Shown piece after piece: positions 24,981-32,996 of a stretch of 34,959 nucleotides of DNA. Each line of letters starts with the position of its first letter. The stretch's first letter is position 1. This DNA comes from Halobacteriovorax sp. (GTDB taxonomy: Bacteria > Bdellovibrionota > Bacteriovoracia > Bacteriovoracales > Bacteriovoracaceae), in NCBI GenBank assembly GCA_020048985.1, contig JAIFLR010000005.1, forward strand, positions 1 through 34,959, in the 5' to 3' direction. The position numbers were made by a program, and so were the translations under genes. The notes under the pieces were generated by a model. That model saw only the letters and a list, made by a program, of their open reading frames with translations. It did no database searches and had not been told where the DNA came from.

Positions 24981-25059
24981 CTTGAGAATTTTAGCACAGA
25001 CGCATCTTTAAATGAAGAGTGCCTTATGTCAGAATCTACCTACTTCAAAGGAATGGTTT

Positions 25060-27006
25060 ATGACGAAAATTGCGAGTTTACCGGTTAAGAAGGCCATCGA
25101 GTCGAAATCCTATTTTAAAGGAATTGAATCCTACCAAGAGCAGTATAAGCACTCGATTAGTGAGCCTGAAAAGTTTTGGCTGGAGGCGGCAAAAAATATG
25201 GATTGGTTTACCTTTCCGACTCGAGCGACTCAAGGAGATTTCTCACGCGTTAATTATTCTTGGTATCCACAAGGAAAAATCAATGCTGCCTATAATTGTC
25301 TTGATCGACATCTTGAGAAGCGAGGTAAAAAAGATGCCATTATTTGGGCCAAAGATGAGCCTGGTGAGTATCAACATATTACCTATCAAGAAGTTTATGA
25401 AAACGTTTGTCGCCTTACTAACTTACTAGAAGCCCACGGAGTCAAAAAAGGGGATAGGGTTTGTATTTATCTACCTATGGTTCCTGAATTGGTTTATTCG
25501 GTTTTAGCTTGTGCCAGGATTGGTGCAATTCATTCAGTGGTATTTGGTGGCTTCAGCGCTGATGCTCTTAAAGGCAGAGTTTTGGATGCCGAATGCAAAG
25601 TTGTTATTACTGCCAATGAAGGCCTGCGTGGCGGAAAAGCCATTCCGCTTAAGGCAATCGTGGATGAAGCACTTGAGGGAGTCAGGTGTGTGGAGAAAGT
25701 TCTTGTGGTTCATAGAACTTTCACCAAGGTCCCCATGGTAATGGGAAGAGATTTAAATTACGAAGAAGAAGTTAAAAAATATCGTCCAGTCGCCCCCTGT
25801 GCAGTAATGGATTCTGAAGATCCACTTTTTATTCTTTATACTTCCGGCTCAACTGGAAAACCTAAGGGAGTTGTTCACACAACTGGTGGCTATTTAACTT
25901 ATGCGACCTTCACTCATAAATATGTTTTTGATTACCATGAAGACGATGTGTATTTTTGTACCGCTGACATTGGATGGGTTACGGGGCACTCTTATGTTGT
26001 CTATGGCCCCCTCGCCAATGGGGCCACCTCAGTCTTATTTGAATCAGTTCCGACTTATCCCGATGCTGGTCGCTACTGGCGAATGGTGAAGGATTTAAAA
26101 GTAAATATCTTCTACACTGCTCCAACTGCACTCAGAACTCTGGCGCAGTTTGGTGATTCTTGGGTGAAGAAATATGATTTATCTTCAATTCGTATTCTGG
26201 GAACTGTGGGTGAGCCAATAAATCCTGAAATTTGGAAATGGTATCATGATGTTGTGGGCGACGGACGCTGTGATATTGTGGATACCTGGTGGCAAACAGA
26301 GACGGGAGGAGTATTGATTACCCCTATTCCAGGAGTCACACCAACCAAGCCCGGCTCAGCAACGCTGCCTTTCTTCGGAGTTCAGCCCATAATTGTAAAA
26401 CCTGAAACGGGTGAAGAGTTGAAGGGAAATAATGTAGAAGGTGCCCTTTGTATTAAGGCAACCTGGCCTGGACAATCGAAAACGATTTATAAGGATCATG
26501 CTCGATTTGTAGAAACATATTTTTCTCAATATCCTGGACTTTATTTTACGGGTGACGGCTGCCGTCGGGATGAGGACGGATATTACTGGATAACAGGACG
26601 TATTGATGATGTCTTGAACGTTTCAGGGCATCGACTTGGTACTGCCGAAATTGAAAGTGCCTTAATGGAGCATGATGAAGTGGCCGAAGCGGCAGTCGTC
26701 GGCATGCCACATGATATAAAAGGTGTGGGGATTTACGCTTATATTATTTTATACGATTCGAAAAATTCTTCGCCTGAACTAATTGAAAGCATCAAAGAAG
26801 TAGTAAGAGTTAAAATTGGCCGTTTTGCTGCACCTGACACAATTCATATCACTCATGCACTCCCAAAAACTCGCTCGGGTAAAGTCATGCGCAGAATTCT
26901 AAGAAAAATTGCCGCCTCTGAGTATGATGGGTTAGGAGATATTTCTACCCTCTCTGATCCTGCAGTTGTTCAGTCCCTCGTTGATGAACATAAGGCGAGC
27001 ACTTAG
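25060..27006 (+). CDS. acs: Acetyl-CoA synthetase Acs
   Basis: Activates acetate with ATP and CoA to acetyl-CoA via acetyl-adenylate in the cytoplasm. 648 residues from the ATG at 25060, with AAAGGA 7 bp upstream; the in-frame ATG at 25012 would add 16 residues with no better site. E. coli Acs is 652. ATP/AMP motifs are clear: [29 protein letters not shown] and [10 protein letters not shown]...[19 protein letters not shown]. The C-terminal [11 protein letters not shown] contains the lysine that in other Acs enzymes is acetylated to switch the enzyme off. It is divergent from a MerR/B12 regulator and followed with no gap by a small protein gene. Confidence 0.96.
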
Positions 27007-27354
27007 TTGGAAGAGTTATGCGGGGAAATTTGTCGGCGCTTTGAGGACAAAGAACTTAATTTTCAAATAGTTTCTGAGCTACTGGCAGATCTCGCTCAAG
27101 CGTTATCGGAAAGCACAAGCCGCTTTGTGGATATTGATAATTCTGCCCGTGAGGATCTTGCCTTGTCTCAAGCGGTGAGATCCAACATCAACTCATGTGT
27201 TGAAGAAAAAGAGCGACAAGAGGATCTGTTTAAAATCTACTTGTGTCTCAAAAACTATCTGGGACTAAAGTACAAGTACGGCGAAGCCGCAGACTGGTAT
27301 TTGAAGGGAGAGTTTGATTCTCATCTTGAAGAGGTAATCAGAAAATTAATTTGA
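27007..27354 (+). CDS. Small acidic helical protein downstream of acs
   Basis: 115 residues. The only available start is TTG 27007, directly after the acs stop, so translation is probably coupled. The ribosome binding site inside acs (AAGGCG) is weak. The protein is rich in Glu, Leu and charged residues with helical periodicity; it has four Cys (C5, C9, C62, C74) but no known metal motif. No signal peptide, so it is cytoplasmic. No family recognised. The reading frame may be real by its codon content and conserved spacing to acs, but the TTG start keeps this below certain. Its 3' end overlaps the UDG-fold gene by 34 bp on the other strand. Confidence 0.55.
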   Translation: MEELCGEICRRFEDKELNFQIVSELLADLAQALSESTSRFVDIDNSAREDLALSQAVRSNINSCVEEKERQEDLFKIYLCLKNYLGLKYKYGEAADWYLKGEFDSHLEEVIRKLI

Positions 27355-29690
27355 TTTATGTTTATAAAATTTAGGATCATGGAAAGTGCCGGGTCAACAT
27401 CGACTCGTTTTAAAAACTGAGGGATCTTTTCTCCAGGCATCGGAAGATTACTTTCTTCAAGCTTTTTAAGTAACTCATCAACGTTGTCATTTGGATCAGT
27501 TTTAAAATTTTGTTGCTGGTTCCACGCCCACGCTGGAGCAACTTCTGCGAATGCAAACCCTCGGTAGCCATCATAGGCAGCAAGAACCCTGTCACCCGAA
27601 GTTCCTTCCCAAACGCGAGCGTAAAATGAAAGATGAGAGCGCGGAATATTTGCCATTTCTCCAGAGAGATTAGCGCCTAGAGTTTTTGAAAGAGCCTTCA
27701 CATCAGCTGAATCATCCCCAGATCGGTCCATATTAATAATTTTAACGGCTGACCCTTTAAGAATGCGAGCGACTTCCTTCTGGGCATTGACTCCATCTGC
27801 AATAATCATCGAAGGTTTTGATTCATTCATGACTGTTAGAAGAAGTTTTTCTCTATATTCCTCAGTCGCTTTAAGTGTCTGATCCCAGTCCTCAGTGGAA
27901 GCCTTATCCATACCGAATGGAACTGTCTTAAGCACAAGATATTTATCGTTGATTCCAGCATCAACCATCATGCGGTGAAGAAACTGGCCACGAGTGCCGG
28001 TTAAGGCACGTGAAGTGATCAGATCGTCGTATCCATGGGGGTCGGCGACAATAATCACCTTGGGAGAATTAAATGTTCCACGATAGTGGCCAAAATCCGC
28101 ATTCTCTGGGGAACTTTTGACCATGAAGGCTTCAATCCCATCTTTAGCTTCGGTCTTTCCAGATTTTTCTTTGAAAATTAATTTAAGGTCTAAATTCTCT
28201 TTCATTATTTTTGCATAAACTTCCCCGGGGCCAGCATCAAAAATATAACGAAGGGCTGTCGATCTTGGGCGGGCAACGAACAACTCATCGGCAGAGAAAC
28301 TTTCTGCCGGAAGTGCCTTCGTCATGGCCTCAATCGTTTTGTTGTCAAATTTAGCTTTCTCTCTTGTTCCAAAAACAATCACGTGTGAATTACCACTCAT
28401 GCGACTGGCAGATGAAACCGGAACCATACGTGTTCCTGGTGTACCGAAGTCATAGTATTCAGGGCCAATATCTTTGCGGGCATATTTATAGGCCTGGCCA
28501 TTGGCATAGTTGTTAGTCATCCCAGGGTCTGCGGCGATATTCCATCCCTTCTCCGTATAGGGCCGTATCTCTTTTAGATTTTCAGCAACTTTTTTGGAAG
28601 CTTCTGGGGGAGTCATGGTACTTAAGAATGTTGGATGGGGAAGTTCAACGACTAAGAGTTCTGTCGTTACTGAAGAGCCGTCTTTAAGTTTCATTCCTCT
28701 CAAAGATCGTGTGTTCTGACCATTAAGATGAATCTTGTCTAAATCGTACCCATCAATTTGAGCAGTATTCAGGAGACCATTTTTATTAGGTCCACCCTTG
28801 GTGAAGATCATCTTTGATTTGTAGGTTTCAAAGTTTTCAGTAATGTCTTTTTTTACTGCCTCTTGTTCTTCAGGCTTAGTGTAATCTATCTTTCTACCCA
28901 ATTGTTTTGCGTAAAGATCTTTCCCATTCTCGTCGAGTAAGATGGGGAATTCATTGTTGCCCCCAGCGTACACCATGCCCGTCTCGGCAATTTGAATATT
29001 TTTAATTTCATTTTCATGGGTAGCACCAACTTTGGCGCCCTTAGATTCTATGTATGTGGCCACTGCATCACGGGCAGCGCCGCCAAATGTGACAATCAAC
29101 TTGATTGAATCTTTATTATTGCGAATGATCCAATCAATCAGATCGTTTCTCCATTTTACCATTGGAGATGCTTGATCCTGACTCATTAACCACAGTTCAT
29201 TATCAACAAAGTTTCCGAAACGAAGAGAATCTTTGCCTTGTCCTCGCAGAACGTAGGGTGTTTGATAGGCCCCGTATTGTCCTTGAATGGTGTAAGCGAA
29301 AGTATTGATGAAGGCTGCTCCCTCGTTCACTCCGAAGTAAGCGGCAAGATCCTGGGCCCGCCCACCAAAGCCTGCAGTCGCTGTTCTTCCTGCAGCTTCC
29401 GCAATATGAGTGGCGTCCTGGCCAATAAATAGGATTTTTACTTTGTTTTTACCTTGAAGCATGCGCCAGTTGACGGGACCGAATGCCGGTCTGAATTTTT
29501 GGTCGGCCATAATCTTCATGGAGACTTCTGGCATATTTGGAATTGCTGCCACCAGATCAATAATTTCTTTGCCTAATTTTGTTTTTGGATCTGGCCCAGC
29601 ATCGTATGACCACTGAGGCATGCTCGCGTGGGTTAATTGCGTGGATAAAACTAAAAGGTTAAAAAAACTAAATAGTTTTTTATTTTTCAT
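27321..29690 (-). CDS. Exported protein with two uracil-DNA-glycosylase-fold domains
   Basis: 789 residues with a signal peptide (LFSFFNLLVLSTQLTHA). Residues ~65-380 contain the UDG-superfamily elements: G90-Q-D92-A-T-H95 in place of GQDPYH, then GRTATAGFGGRAQDLAAYFG like the family-4 GRPFVG loop, N129 in FINTF, VTFGGAARDAV (family 4 has a G-A-x-A turn), and H352 in ELPHPTFL like the HPSP/HPA motif. Catalytic-type Asp, Asn and His are all there. Residues ~480-720 repeat the pattern in a degenerate form (VADPHGYDD; RALTGTRGQF; PRSHLSFY), preceded by a second DAGP motif (DAGP at 30-33 and 485-488), which suggests internal duplication. Known UDGs remove uracil from DNA inside cells; this one would act outside the cytoplasm. 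Activity is inferred, not shown. AGGA precedes the ATG, inside a 6-bp inverted repeat (29694-29699 / 29721-29726). Confidence 0.7.
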   Translation of the reverse strand: MKNKKLFSFFNLLVLSTQLTHASMPQWSYDAGPDPKTKLGKEIIDLVAAIPNMPEVSMKIMADQKFRPAFGPVNWRMLQGKNKVKILFIGQDATHIAEAAGRTATAGFGGRAQDLAAYFGVNEGAAFINTFAYTIQGQYGAYQTPYVLRGQGKDSLRFGNFVDNELWLMSQDQASPMVKWRNDLIDWIIRNNKDSIKLIVTFGGAARDAVATYIESKGAKVGATHENEIKNIQIAETGMVYAGGNNEFPILLDENGKDLYAKQLGRKIDYTKPEEQEAVKKDITENFETYKSKMIFTKGGPNKNGLLNTAQIDGYDLDKIHLNGQNTRSLRGMKLKDGSSVTTELLVVELPHPTFLSTMTPPEASKKVAENLKEIRPYTEKGWNIAADPGMTNNYANGQAYKYARKDIGPEYYDFGTPGTRMVPVSSASRMSGNSHVIVFGTREKAKFDNKTIEAMTKALPAESFSADELFVARPRSTALRYIFDAGPGEVYAKIMKENLDLKLIFKEKSGKTEAKDGIEAFMVKSSPENADFGHYRGTFNSPKVIIVADPHGYDDLITSRALTGTRGQFLHRMMVDAGINDKYLVLKTVPFGMDKASTEDWDQTLKATEEYREKLLLTVMNESKPSMIIADGVNAQKEVARILKGSAVKIINMDRSGDDSADVKALSKTLGANLSGEMANIPRSHLSFYARVWEGTSGDRVLAAYDGYRGFAFAEVAPAWAWNQQQNFKTDPNDNVDELLKKLEESNLPMPGEKIPQFLKRVDVDPALSMILNFININQINFLITSSR

Positions 29691-29801: not shown

Positions 29802-30308
29802 CTATTTTAAGTCAGCTTTCATCTCGTAATTTTTAAGAATGGCCACGTTTAATAAAAGTCTAACTTGAGGCCAGCCTAGTTCAGGAACTGAAGGGTGATA
29901 ATAGAGGTCACACTCAAACTTTCCACGTTTATTCAAAATACGAATGTGGTGAACATCTTTAAGAGCTCCAACGGTCACGCGGCCAGCATGATGAATAGTG
30001 GCTTTTTCAGAGTCTCTTACTTTAGAAATTTCAAGATCTAGGTATCCGCGCTCATCTTGAAATTCCAACGGCAGCTCAAGAGTCATAGAACTTTTGAGAA
30101 GTTCCGCTGATACTGGAACCATAGGCTTTTTCACAACATCGTACTTAATAAGTACTTCCATCACATTTTTTTCAAGATCAGTTTTAACCACTAGAGCTTC
30201 GAGAGTTCCGCCCTGATGAAGTTTTCCGGGTTGAATCTTGTAACCTAAACTTTCAATTGAAGCATGAAGAGTAGTGGTGAAAAAAACAAGTAGCGCGAGT
30301 GCTTTCAT
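29802..30308 (-). CDS. Exported protein of unknown function
   Basis: 168 residues from ATG 30308, with AAGGA upstream; an upstream in-frame ATG is less well placed. A signal peptide (LALLVFFTTTLHA) is clear. The mature protein is mostly beta-strand-like with two His-rich spots (ATIHHAG, DVHHIRI) but no recognised motif; one Cys in KFECDLYY. It may form a small beta-sandwich in the periplasm. It precedes the UDG-fold gene on the same strand with a 111-bp gap, so they may or may not share a transcript. Confidence 0.6.
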   Translation of the reverse strand: MKALALLVFFTTTLHASIESLGYKIQPGKLHQGGTLEALVVKTDLEKNVMEVLIKYDVVKKPMVPVSAELLKSSMTLELPLEFQDERGYLDLEISKVRDSEKATIHHAGRVTVGALKDVHHIRILNKRGKFECDLYYHPSVPELGWPQVRLLLNVAILKNYEMKADLK

Positions 30309-30414
30309 TGAAATCCTTATCAATAAAAAATGCCGTTAGGCCAAAATTATGTCGTCGCAATAGGGATTTGGCCACGTGTTTATGTTAAAAATGAGTCGGA
30401 AAACGGAGGTCCTC

Positions 30415-30870: not shown

Positions 30871-31503
30871 TTAGATATTAATAAAATGAATAGTGTCTGA
30901 GAGCTCTGAAGCGTGTGCCTCACTCACTTTACCGTTGAAATCTTTCAGGATTTTTTCTTCAAGCTTGCTGATGCTGTTGATGAGGCCCAGACCAACGTTA
31001 CCCACTTTAAAATGAGTTTTCATAATCTCAATCAGCTCATCCAGCTCAGCTTGAGTCACTTCAGTTTTAAGTTTTTCATCAATCAGGAGCTGGATGTTCT
31101 TTTCGAGGGTGGAAACCATAATCATTGCAGTGACTTTATGAGACACTTTTGATGTCCCGAGAGTATGAAAATACTCTACGGCTTTTTCTTTGCACTCTCT
31201 TTGAACTTCCCAGTCACTTAAGGCCATTCGTTTGGCCCAATCAAAATGTCCAAGCCAAGTCATGAAAAGGGATATCAACAGAAAACTCACTGGCCACATC
31301 CAGCTATAATGAAATTCAAGGTAATAACTGAAGATCAGAGAAGCGACAAAACCACCAATCAACCCAAATCTCCAGGAAGCTCCGGGGTAGGGATCGGAAG
31401 CGTTTGTGATAACGAGGAGTAGCTCGCAACCCGTATTATTTTCAAATTGTTTGAGCTTAGATTCAACTAAAGTGACGTCGTCTTGAATTAAAATATTTCT
31501 CAT
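30871..31503 (-). CDS. TPM-domain protein (second copy)
   Basis: 210 residues from the ATG at 31503, which overlaps the previous gene's stop by 1 bp (TAATG), with GGGGAG upstream. Two central transmembrane helices (GLIGGFVASLIFSY and MWPVSFLLISLFMTWL). Flanking regions resemble the TPM fold of YgcG-type proteins, with late segments TLEKNIQLLIDEKL and AHASELSD. There is no signal peptide. The upstream gene encodes the classical TPM protein. Last gene of the lemA operon. Activity unknown; TPM domains have been proposed to act as phosphatases but this is weakly supported for this protein. Confidence 0.7.
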   Translation of the reverse strand: MRNILIQDDVTLVESKLKQFENNTGCELLLVITNASDPYPGASWRFGLIGGFVASLIFSYYLEFHYSWMWPVSFLLISLFMTWLGHFDWAKRMALSDWEVQRECKEKAVEYFHTLGTSKVSHKVTAMIMVSTLEKNIQLLIDEKLKTEVTQAELDELIEIMKTHFKVGNVGLGLINSISKLEEKILKDFNGKVSEAHASELSDTIHFINI

Positions 31504-32375
31504 TACCAACTCCCCGAAGATCCGCCGCCCGAGAAGCCGCCGCCACCACCGCCCCAGCTACCACCACCGCTGCTTCCACCAAAGCCTCCTCCGCCGCCGT
31601 GATATCCACGGTGACTACTAGTTCCAGATGCAAGGGCGAAAAGTAAGTTTTGCAGGCCAATCATTCCTATCAAAAGTCCCATCAAAAACATGAAACCAAT
31701 CATGGCCAATCCAGCTGCACCAACAAAAAATCCAACGCCGGCCATGCCTGCGCCAGTAAATAAGCCACGAGCGACTGGTTTTTTAGATAAAAGAATTTGT
31801 CCGACAATCAAAATACCTATCAGGAAAGGAAAAGCTATAATGAGAGGCTTGGGAATCGATCTCATTTGTGTTGATCGGCGAACGATTCGATTGCCTTCTT
31901 TGAGTTGTATATTAAAAACACGGGCAATGTCCGACATCACGAGCTTTAAGCCACTGTGAAAGTCTCCCTGCTTGAAATAAGGAGCGAGAACATTTGTGAT
32001 GTAGCGGTTAGCTTCGAAATCTGTTATTTCGCCTTCAATGCCTTCGCCAACTTCCATGCGCATCTTGCGTTCATTTTTGGCAATGATAATGAGAATGCCG
32101 TTTCCCTTCTCTTTGGTACCAAGTTGCCACTTTTCACCAACACGGATGGAAAATTCCTCGATCTCATTACCCTGCATATCGTTCACGGTAAAAATTGTGA
32201 TCTGTGGACCCTGGTGGGTATGAATCTCATAGGCCAGCTGACTTAGGTCTTGTTCTTCTTCAGGAGTCAGGAAGTTTGCTTCATCCATAACAGGAGAACG
32301 TAGAGCGGGGATCTGAATTTCAGCTCCCCACACGTTCAAGGACAAAAGAAGAATGAGAGAAAGAAAATATCTCAC
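31503..32375 (-). CDS. TPM-domain protein with Gly/Ser-rich tail (YgcG-like)
   Basis: 290 residues starting at GTG 32375, which overlaps the lemA stop (TAGTG). Signal peptide LLLSLNVWG, then the TPM domain (about 25-160; VMDEANFLTPEEEQDLSQL and a conserved D-G-I-x-I-I-A-K like segment as KGNGILIIIAK), then two to three transmembrane helices and a C-terminal tail of Gly, Ser and Trp (GGGGFGGSSGGGSWG type). This fits the YgcG/TPM_phosphatase group, usually paired with LemA. The tail is low-complexity and may mediate contacts. Envelope location; function unproven. Confidence 0.85.
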   Translation of the reverse strand: MRYFLSLILLLSLNVWGAEIQIPALRSPVMDEANFLTPEEEQDLSQLAYEIHTHQGPQITIFTVNDMQGNEIEEFSIRVGEKWQLGTKEKGNGILIIIAKNERKMRMEVGEGIEGEITDFEANRYITNVLAPYFKQGDFHSGLKLVMSDIARVFNIQLKEGNRIVRRSTQMRSIPKPLIIAFPFLIGILIVGQILLSKKPVARGLFTGAGMAGVGFFVGAAGLAMIGFMFLMGLLIGMIGLQNLLFALASGTSSHRGYHGGGGGFGGSSGGGSWGGGGGGFSGGGSSGSW

Positions 32376-32947
32376 TAGAATTTAACTTCTGGAGTCTTTT
32401 GTTCAGTCTCAGTTGCAGTGAACTGAGGTTTTTTCTCAAAGTGGTGAATCAGAGAATTGGTAAGACTTGTAGGGAAAACAGTCACAAGATTGTTAAATTC
32501 CTGTACTGATTCGATATAACGACGACGAGCAATCGCGATTCTATTTTCCGTGCCTTCGAGCTGTGCCTGTAGACCTTTAAAGTTTTCGTTCGCCTTAAGG
32601 TCAGGGTATCTCTCAGAAACAACCATCAAGCGACCAAGTGCCTGAGAGAGCTCCCCTTGAGCTGCCTGGAATTTTTTCATTGTTTCAGGATTCAGGTCTT
32701 TGGCATCAACGTTAATGGCCGTGGCCTTAGCACGAGCAGCGATAACTCCCTCGAGAGTTTCTTTTTCGTGGCCAGCATATCCTTTAACGGTCGCAACCAG
32801 ATTGGGGATCAAGTCTGAGCGTCTTTTATATTGGTTTTGTACTTCGGCCCAAGTTCCTTCCACGGCATTGTTGGCAGTAGGAATTGATTGAAGTCCGCAA
32901 GAAACGAGGAAGAGGGATAATAGAAGCATAACAATTGTCGATTTCAT
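32375..32947 (-). CDS. lemA: LemA-family lipoprotein
   Basis: 190 residues from the ATG at 32947 (AGGAG upstream); an upstream in-frame ATG at 32986 lies inside the rpsT terminator region. Signal peptide with lipobox LVSC (Cys17). The mature part is the LemA four-helix fold with the conserved segments AEVQNQYKRRSDLIPNLV and RRRYIESVQEFNNLV. LemA proteins form membrane-attached helical bundles; their function is poorly defined, but they are commonly operon partners of TPM proteins, as here. Translation is coupled to the TPM gene. Only about 15 bp separate the rpsT terminator's U run from this start. Confidence 0.9.
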   Translation of the reverse strand: MKSTIVMLLLSLFLVSCGLQSIPTANNAVEGTWAEVQNQYKRRSDLIPNLVATVKGYAGHEKETLEGVIAARAKATAINVDAKDLNPETMKKFQAAQGELSQALGRLMVVSERYPDLKANENFKGLQAQLEGTENRIAIARRRYIESVQEFNNLVTVFPTSLTNSLIHHFEKKPQFTATETEQKTPEVKF

Positions 32948-32962
32948 GAAATCTCCTGAAAT

Positions 32963-32996
32963 AAAAAAACCCAAAGTATTATTCATACTTTGGGTT
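32963..32996 (-). terminator. Intrinsic terminator of rpsT, immediately upstream of lemA
   Basis: A perfect 12-bp stem (32968-32979 with 32985-32996) closes a 5-nt loop, and on the minus strand it is followed by seven T. It ends rpsT. The lemA start is only 15 bp further, leaving no room for a promoter in between. Confidence 0.92.

What the first reader, a model, noticed from the sequence alone, without database searches (positions are those of the whole stretch)
27321..29690. Exported tandem UDG-fold protein
A 789-residue protein with a signal peptide carries two segments resembling the uracil-DNA glycosylase fold. The first keeps an Asp in GQDATH, an Asn at 129, a family-4-like GRxxxxGxxG loop and an HP motif (H352). 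The second is degenerate. DNA glycosylases normally act inside cells, so an exported, duplicated version is unexpected. In a predator it could act on prey DNA; alternatively the fold may have been recruited for another substrate. Reading of motifs is from sequence; function is inference.
Basis: partly seen in the sequence, partly recalled or inferred. Interest (0 to 1): 0.75.

Follow-up and report, generated by a model that had tools for sequence, protein, structure and literature searches.

The report
Exported double uracil-glycosylase-fold protein family
Many Bdellovibrio-type bacteria carry an apparently exported protein made of two joined DNA-repair-enzyme folds, the first with an intact-looking active site, and its gene tends to occur with other exported nucleobase-processing genes, which hints at base removal outside the cell.

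Summary
ORF 27321-29690 (-) encodes 789 residues: a signal-peptide-like N-terminus and two UDG-fold domains. Each domain's profile finds the glycosylase BdiUng (5gn2): E 5e-19 and 7.6e-12. AlphaFold models are confident and all 50 listed Foldseek rows for each are UDG-superfamily structures. It is a family: 80 of 368 genomes of the phylum. Domain 1 keeps Asp/Glu-Asn-His in 59 of 61 homologues examined; domain 2 lost Asp and Asn but has its own invariant residues. Export is supported by N-termini and cysteine depletion. New: the gene co-occurs with an exported NADAR-like gene (72 of 80 genomes against 38 of 288) and an exported purine-deaminase-like amidohydrolase (35 of 80 against 5 of 288). 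I infer a BdiUng-type base-removing glycosylase acting outside the cytoplasm. Activity, substrate and any role in predation are untested. Against: the window's genome has neither partner, its genus shows no association, and 24 listed genomes of genus g65 lack the gene.

The parts
27321..29690 (-). gene for the exported tandem UDG-fold protein, 789 aa (P0001)
   Evidence: the closest near-full-length homologues are 50-64% identical, others down to 31%
29625..29690 (-). signal-peptide-like N-terminus, residues 1-22, likely cleavage after THA22
   Evidence: sequence; family N-termini; this member fails the strict rule
28509..29609 (-). domain 1, residues about 28-394, BdiUng-like UDG fold with candidate active site
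   Evidence: profile to 5gn2 E 5e-19; model
29406..29423 (-). motif A GQDATH, residues 90-95 (Asp92)
   Evidence: Asp or Glu in 60 of 61 homologues
29361..29390 (-). GRTATAGFGG loop, residues 101-110
   Evidence: aligned with the RRILVGTAGR stretch of BdiUng
29304..29306 (-). Asn129, candidate equivalent of the uracil-reading Asn
   Evidence: Asn in 60 of 61; aligned with VNTF of BdiUng
28656..29045 (-). insertion before motif B, residues about 216-345, largely absent from type B members
28632..28637 (-). motif B His352-Pro353
   Evidence: His in 59 of 61, Pro in 61 of 61
27501..28247 (-). domain 2, residues about 482-730, second BdiUng-like fold without the catalytic Asp and Asn
   Evidence: Pfam PF03167 540-699
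28023..28046 (-). ADPHGYDD, residues 549-556, position equivalent to motif A; Asp550 invariant
   Evidence: Asp550 61 of 61
27984..28010 (-). RALTGTRGQ, residues 561-569, loop equivalent to that of domain 1
27594..27647 (-). IPRSHLSFYARVWEGTSG, residues 682-699, conserved patch near where motif B would lie (placement is inference)

Best explanation
An exported N-glycosylase of the BdiUng class, built from two fused BdiUng-like domains. Shown by sequence or model: N-terminal export signal (or lipoprotein anchor in some relatives), two UDG folds, a D/E-N-H trio in domain 1, and a conserved but non-canonical site in domain 2. Inferred: domain 1 flips a base out of single-stranded or fragmented nucleic acid (or binds a nucleoside-like molecule) and hydrolyses its N-glycosidic bond with Asp92, Asn129 and His352; domain 2 acts as a built-in pseudo-dimer partner for substrate binding; the reaction takes place in the periplasm, at the outer membrane or in the prey/extracellular space, in many species alongside an exported NADAR-type N-glycosidase and an exported purine-deaminase-like amidohydrolase, to strip and process (often modified) bases during digestion of foreign nucleic acid.
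For: Fold and family. Catalytic trio kept in 59 of 61 homologues found by whole-protein search. Export: strict signal rule 40 of 52 members against 5 of 52 internal-start controls and 0 of 31 proteins of five neighbour families that I read as cytosolic; 12 lipoboxes; Cys 0.13% in type A mature chains against 1.04% in neighbouring ORFs, none in the window protein, two Cys columns kept in 18 of 18 type B members. Housekeeping repair is covered by a leaderless family-1 Ung in the same genome. Partners: exported NADAR-like gene in 72 of 80 UDG genomes against 38 of 288 others (OR 59, p 9e-39), also in three strata of family and at genus level (46 of 50 against 12 of 131); exported amidohydrolase in 35 of 80 against 5 of 288 (OR 44, p 2e-21).
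Against: No activity test exists. The window's own genome has no NADAR or amidohydrolase hit at the cut-offs used (genome 92% complete), no such gene lies beside this gene, and within its genus there is no association (1 of 2 UDG genomes against 9 of 24 others, p 1.0). L118 and L119, which carry the gene, have no NADAR hit. Net charge of the mature window protein is 0, not the basic surface expected of a strong DNA binder. Type B members carry Glu at position 92 in 24 of 24. Two homologues (L037, L084) lost the trio. The gene is absent from the 24 g65 genomes listed and from 24 of 26 genomes of its genus. Type B chains are less depleted in Cys (0.69%). Fisher p-values do not remove shared ancestry.
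Confidence: 0.5

Rival explanations
1. The UDG fold was recruited for a non-nucleobase extracytoplasmic substrate (for example a sugar, cofactor or cell-envelope compound), with D/N/H kept for another glycosidic bond.
For: Export is unusual for a DNA glycosylase (general knowledge); near-zero net charge; large insertion before motif B; motif A continues differently from BdiUng after Asp92.
Against: Co-occurring genes are base or nucleoside enzymes by homology (NADAR-like, purine-deaminase-like amidohydrolase); the candidate uracil-reading Asn is kept in 60 of 61.
Confidence: 0.25
2. A non-catalytic exported nucleic-acid-binding protein: both domains are used only to bind DNA or modified bases.
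For: Domain 2 lacks the glycosylase Asp and Asn; two homologues lost the trio in domain 1 as well; type B has Glu for Asp.
Against: Asp or Glu, Asn and His kept together in 59 of 61 homologues, down to 22-27% identity for type B, argues for catalysis in domain 1; net charge near zero does not suggest a dedicated DNA binder.
Confidence: 0.15
3. Not exported in practice: an internal start gives a cytoplasmic repair enzyme.
For: Several members have alternative upstream starts; the window protein fails my strict signal rule.
Against: 40 of 52 strict and 52 of 52 loose signal calls, 12 lipoboxes, cysteine depletion in type A, conserved Cys columns in type B; a leaderless Ung is present in the same genome.
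Confidence: 0.05

Closest known systems
BdiUng (Blr0248, PDB 5gn2), Bradyrhizobium diazoefficiens uracil-DNA glycosylase
   Same: Fold and sequence of both halves; GQD motif A, conserved loop and Asn in NTF of domain 1. BdiUng also holds an HPT (seen in the sequence printed); that it corresponds to His352-Pro353-Thr is my reading, since no alignment here joins them. The primary paper is not held; I recall that it describes a dimer preferring single-stranded DNA. [quoted passage not shown]
   Different: BdiUng is one domain (272 aa in the solved chain); here two domains are fused, apparently exported, with an insertion of about 130 residues before motif B and a second site without Asp and Asn.
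Family 1 Ung (own-genome copy L153, C88)
   Same: GQD motif A, Asn and His-Pro motif B (by eye).
   Different: Ung is one leaderless domain with GQDPYH and HPSPLS; the window protein has GQDATH and HPTFLS and a signal-like N-terminus.
Family 4 UDG and UdgX
   Same: Overall fold; Foldseek ranks them next after BdiUng.
   Different: No cysteine for a 4Fe-4S cluster, GQD instead of GE(A/G/Q)PG, no KRRIH R-loop (motifs from PMC10359453, passages).
NADAR/YbiA N-glycosidases (partner gene, not the window gene)
   Same: The exported partner keeps E-x6-K in 11 of 11, matching the two residues that are largely conserved over the superfamily (PMC11543638, passages); its profile hits YbiA 2b3w at E 5.6e-6.
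   Different: Signal-like N-terminus, and below the Pfam and NCBIfam curated cut-offs.

Membership tests
BdiUng-class UDG (domain 1) | Sequence-profile relationship to BdiUng | tested here: met
   E 5e-19; the only other hit up to E 10 has E 0.82
BdiUng-class UDG (domain 1) | UDG alpha/beta fold | tested here: met
   AlphaFold pLDDT 92.2, pTM 0.91; top Foldseek hit 5gn2 E 8.4e-9, TM 0.68 by target but rmsd 10.9 over 423 columns. The output does not say which domain the alignment covers; domain 1 was not modelled alone
BdiUng-class UDG (domain 1) | Catalytic Asp, uracil-reading Asn and His-Pro | tested here: met
   59 of 61 homologues keep D/E-N-H; window has D92, N129, H352-P353
BdiUng-class UDG (domain 1) | Base excision from uracil-type DNA | not testable with these tools
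   needs an enzyme assay
BdiUng-class UDG (domain 2) | Fold and profile relationship | tested here: met
   E 7.6e-12; Foldseek TM 0.66, E 3.5e-10
BdiUng-class UDG (domain 2) | Catalytic Asp and Asn at the equivalent positions | tested here: not met
   Asp92 position is Pro (34 of 36 type A) or Gln (24 of 24 type B), Asn129 position Lys (26 of 36) or Arg (24 of 24); so a UDG-fold domain, not filed as an active UDG
Family 4/5 UDG and UdgX | 4Fe-4S cluster cysteines | tested here: not met
   no Cys in the window protein
Family 1 Ung | GQDPY and HPSPLS motifs; NCBIfam ung | tested here: not met
   GQDAT and HPTFL; no NCBIfam hit up to E 10
NADAR (partner) | Pfam curated cut-off | tested here: not met
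   24.4 bits against 35.1
NADAR (partner) | Superfamily-wide catalytic Glu and Lys | tested here: met
   E86 and K93 in 11 of 11

The most novel reading that the evidence does not exclude
Bdellovibrionota have an extracytoplasmic nucleobase-stripping module: an exported tandem glycosylase of BdiUng type, an exported NADAR N-glycosidase and an exported purine deaminase together remove and process modified or damaged bases from foreign nucleic acid before uptake. It would be base excision used as digestion or detoxification rather than as repair.
Probability: 0.3. Interest if true: 0.87.

Novelty: new variant of a known kind. Interest (0 to 1): 0.68.

Why it matters
DNA glycosylases are thought of as intracellular repair enzymes. 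An exported, fused version spread over a phylum that co-occurs with two other exported nucleobase enzymes points to a use of base excision outside the cell, perhaps in how predatory bacteria digest or make safe the nucleic acid they reuse. About 70% of prey DNA is estimated to be incorporated by B. bacteriovorus (PMC7925074, passages). The partner genes give a concrete, testable set.

Tried and rejected
Phage or plasmid origin: no match in either collection, no PADLOC hit, PHROGs only E 0.18. Neighbourhood of the window gene itself: among the 25 largest neighbour clusters printed, the window contributes only to a MerR-like regulator cluster of 3 loci; the upstream exported ORF has no family hit. 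The EEP-type nuclease has a signal-like N-terminus and lies near 8 of 76 gene loci, but its genome-level link is weak (OR 2.7 overall; OR 0.45, p 0.27 in family f6), so I do not count it as a partner. Recurrence in the neighbourhood alone is not specific: a DEAD-box-helicase-like cluster (8 loci) and an ABC-F-like cluster (7 loci), named by my reading, recur about as often as the nuclease. Packing of the two domains and active-site geometry could not be measured: no coordinates are given.

Literature, all from listings by title and abstract unless said otherwise: UDG superfamily with signal peptide, 0 papers; Bdellovibrio with uracil-DNA glycosylase, 7 papers, none on this; NADAR with signal peptide and secreted, 88 papers, the 8 listed unrelated; three of DNA glycosylase, signal peptide, periplasm, predatory bacteria, 71 papers, 12 listed, none on an exported glycosylase by title. 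The main text of a B. bacteriovorus predation proteome has 0 occurrences of glycosylase and NADAR (PMC12546842, term search); a NADAR specificity paper has 0 of Bdellovibrio (PMC11125620, term search). The primary BdiUng paper is not held.

Full report
What is there. The ORF is real: 27321-29690 on the minus strand, 789 aa, ATG start. The window is contig C109 of a 3.25 Mb, 92% complete genome.

Fold. Pfam recognises the second half (PF03167, residues 540-699, E 8.6e-8, above cut-off), and 36 of 52 members of alignment A3 match that model at E <= 0.01. The first half finds BdiUng in the PDB by single sequence (E 7.4e-4). A family profile finds BdiUng and nothing else up to E 10 (E 1.2e-19). 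Split into halves, domain 1 gives E 5e-19 and domain 2 gives 7.6e-12. The halves align with each other at probability 97, E 1.1e-10 over 156 columns, from a repeated DxGP element onward. AlphaFold on 52 sequences gives pLDDT 92.2 and pTM 0.91 for the whole chain and 93.5 and 0.91 for domain 2 alone. Foldseek puts BdiUng first in both cases: whole chain E 8.4e-9, TM 0.68 by target but rmsd 10.9 over 423 columns; domain 2 E 3.5e-10, TM 0.66. All 50 listed rows in each search are UDG, UdgX, SMUG or TDG structures; the remaining weaker matches are not listed. Domain 1 was not modelled alone. The tandem is therefore two BdiUng-like domains.

Active sites. The unkeyed set is 61 homologues (the window protein plus 60 fetched from 60 of the other 79 genomes with a match; the rest, fragments or near relatives, were not fetched) at phmmer E <= 1e-5. 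In it, position 90 is Gly in 61 of 61, position 92 is Asp in 36 and Glu in 24, Asn129 is in 60, His352 in 59, Pro353 in 61. The trio is complete in 59; the exceptions are L037 and L084 (identified from the alignment). Two subfamilies emerge: type A (window; GQD[AG]TH in most, about 780-920 aa; the script also counts the aberrant 525-aa L084 here) and type B (GQEG[AG]Q, 635-788 aa and one of 886, some with a lipobox). In domain 2 the Asp92 position is Pro (34 of 36 type A) or Gln (24 of 24 type B), the Asn129 position Lys (26 of 36) or Arg (24 of 24), and Asp550 is in 61 of 61. Domain 2 is about as conserved as domain 1 (mean consensus share 0.48 against 0.46 over the 52 rows of A3). So domain 2 is not a glycosylase site of known type, but it is not drifting. 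Caution: A3 came from a scan keyed on GQ[DE]..., so motif A counts from A3 are partly by construction. By recalled alignment, T94 sits where family-1 Ung has the thymine-excluding Tyr of GQDPYH; BdiUng has Ala there (GQDPA), so a wider pocket is possible.

Export. A strict rule (ten hydrophobic residues without N, Q, H or charge, a basic start, an AXA-like site or lipobox, mean hydropathy at least 1.8) passes 40 of 52 members (12 with lipobox; 37 and 32 at thresholds 2.0 and 2.2), 5 of 52 internal-start controls and 0 of 31 proteins of five neighbour families that I read as cytosolic by eye; the window protein fails it through an Asn in the core. A looser rule passes 52 of 52, but also 17 of 52 internal controls and 279 of 557 neighbouring ORFs. 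Independent support: type A mature chains hold 0.13% Cys against 1.04% in neighbouring ORFs and the window protein has none; type B holds 0.69% but keeps two Cys columns in 18 of 18, as expected for a disulphide.

Distribution. 80 of 368 genomes of the phylum, 50 of 181 genera, but 2 of 26 genomes in the window's own genus, itself included. A scan of the GTDB genome collection keyed on one motif gave 63 loci; many titles name Bdellovibrio, Bacteriovoracaceae, Halobacteriovorax or Oligoflexales, others only Proteobacteria, Pseudomonadota, Deltaproteobacteria or 'bacterium'. No phage or plasmid match. The own genome also holds a leaderless family-1 Ung (NCBIfam E 2.5e-103) and a family-4-like protein below the NCBIfam cut-off, so ordinary repair is covered.

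Partners. Among 76 distinct gene loci (two further fetched loci, L069 and L112, were dropped because the core gene was not called in the script), three families with signal-like N-termini recur within seven genes: an amidohydrolase (16 loci), a NADAR-like protein (11) and an endonuclease/exonuclease/phosphatase (8); 15 of 16, 8 of 11 and 8 of 8 pass the strict signal rule. Families that look cytosolic recur too (8 and 7 loci), so the genome-level counts carry the argument. The NADAR-like gene (E <= 1e-8) is in 110 of 368 genomes and in 72 of the 80 with the UDG gene, against 38 of the other 288 (OR 59, p 9e-39). The link holds in family f1 (29 of 32 against 25 of 96), f6 (16 of 19 against 10 of 47) and the rest (27 of 29 against 3 of 145), and by genus (46 of 50 against 12 of 131), but not inside the window's genus (1 of 2 against 9 of 24, p 1.0). 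The strata were assigned from handle numbers and are approximate at the edges. The amidohydrolase (E <= 1e-20) is in 40 genomes, 35 of them with UDG (OR 44, p 2e-21); the three examined are nearest to TRZ/ATZ-type hydrolases and guanine, 8-oxoguanine and 5'-deoxyadenosine deaminases, all far below cut-off, and the best PDB match of the one searched is a methylthioadenosine/SAH deaminase. The nuclease, a built-in comparison, shows only OR 2.7. The NADAR-like protein keeps E-x6-K in 11 of 11 and matches YbiA (E 5.6e-6), below the Pfam cut-off. Of four genomes reached through named loci, L124 and L146 carry it and L118 and L119 do not.

Against. The window's genome has no NADAR or amidohydrolase hit, though it is incomplete. 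The genus g65 (24 genomes listed, G146-G169) lacks the UDG gene but has NADAR in 9, so the pair is not obligatory. Net charge of the mature window protein is 0; medians for domains 1 and 2 are +2 and +3 in type A, +6.5 and +1 in type B: not a strongly basic DNA binder. Fisher tests treat genomes as independent.

How it most likely works. Shown: two BdiUng-like folds, one canonical trio, export signals, strong association across the phylum with other exported base-processing genes. Inferred: domain 1 hydrolyses N-glycosidic bonds of accessible, probably single-stranded or fragmented nucleic acid or of nucleosides; domain 2 serves as an internal partner (BdiUng is, as I recall, a dimer); products feed the deaminase and salvage. 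Prey DNA in the bdelloplast is one plausible substrate: B. bacteriovorus degrades prey DNA and an estimated 70% is incorporated (PMC7925074, passages). I put 0.5 on an exported base-removing glycosylase and 0.3 on the full module.

Noticed in passing
29802-30323 (-): Upstream ORF of 173 aa with its own signal-like N-terminus and no hit in Pfam, NCBIfam, PADLOC or PHROGs at the limits used.
   Followed up: partly
27007-27354 (+): ORF that starts at the base after the acetyl-CoA synthetase-like ORF (25012-27006) ends and overlaps the 3' end of the UDG gene on the other strand by 34 bases.
   Followed up: no
30871-32986 (-): Three-gene cluster of two TPM-domain proteins and a LemA protein.
   Followed up: no
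L037:215-2395 and L084:6436-8013: Signal-bearing homologues that lost the catalytic trio in domain 1.
   Followed up: partly
L129:7475-11101, L141, L148, L126, L132, L145: Type B genes followed on the same strand by a small exported protein, an uncharacterised lipoprotein and the exported amidohydrolase: complete in L129, L141 and L148, partial in the others.
   Followed up: partly
L155:973-1869: 298-residue UDG-like protein in the same genome, family-4-like in its C-terminal part only, below the NCBIfam cut-off.
   Followed up: partly
genus g65 genomes G146-G169: Exported NADAR-like gene present in 9 of 24 listed genomes without the UDG gene.
   Followed up: no
type A against type B homologues: Asp92/Pro551/His686 in most type A against Glu92/Gln551/Asp686 in most type B: substitutions in both domains differ together between subfamilies.
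   Followed up: no
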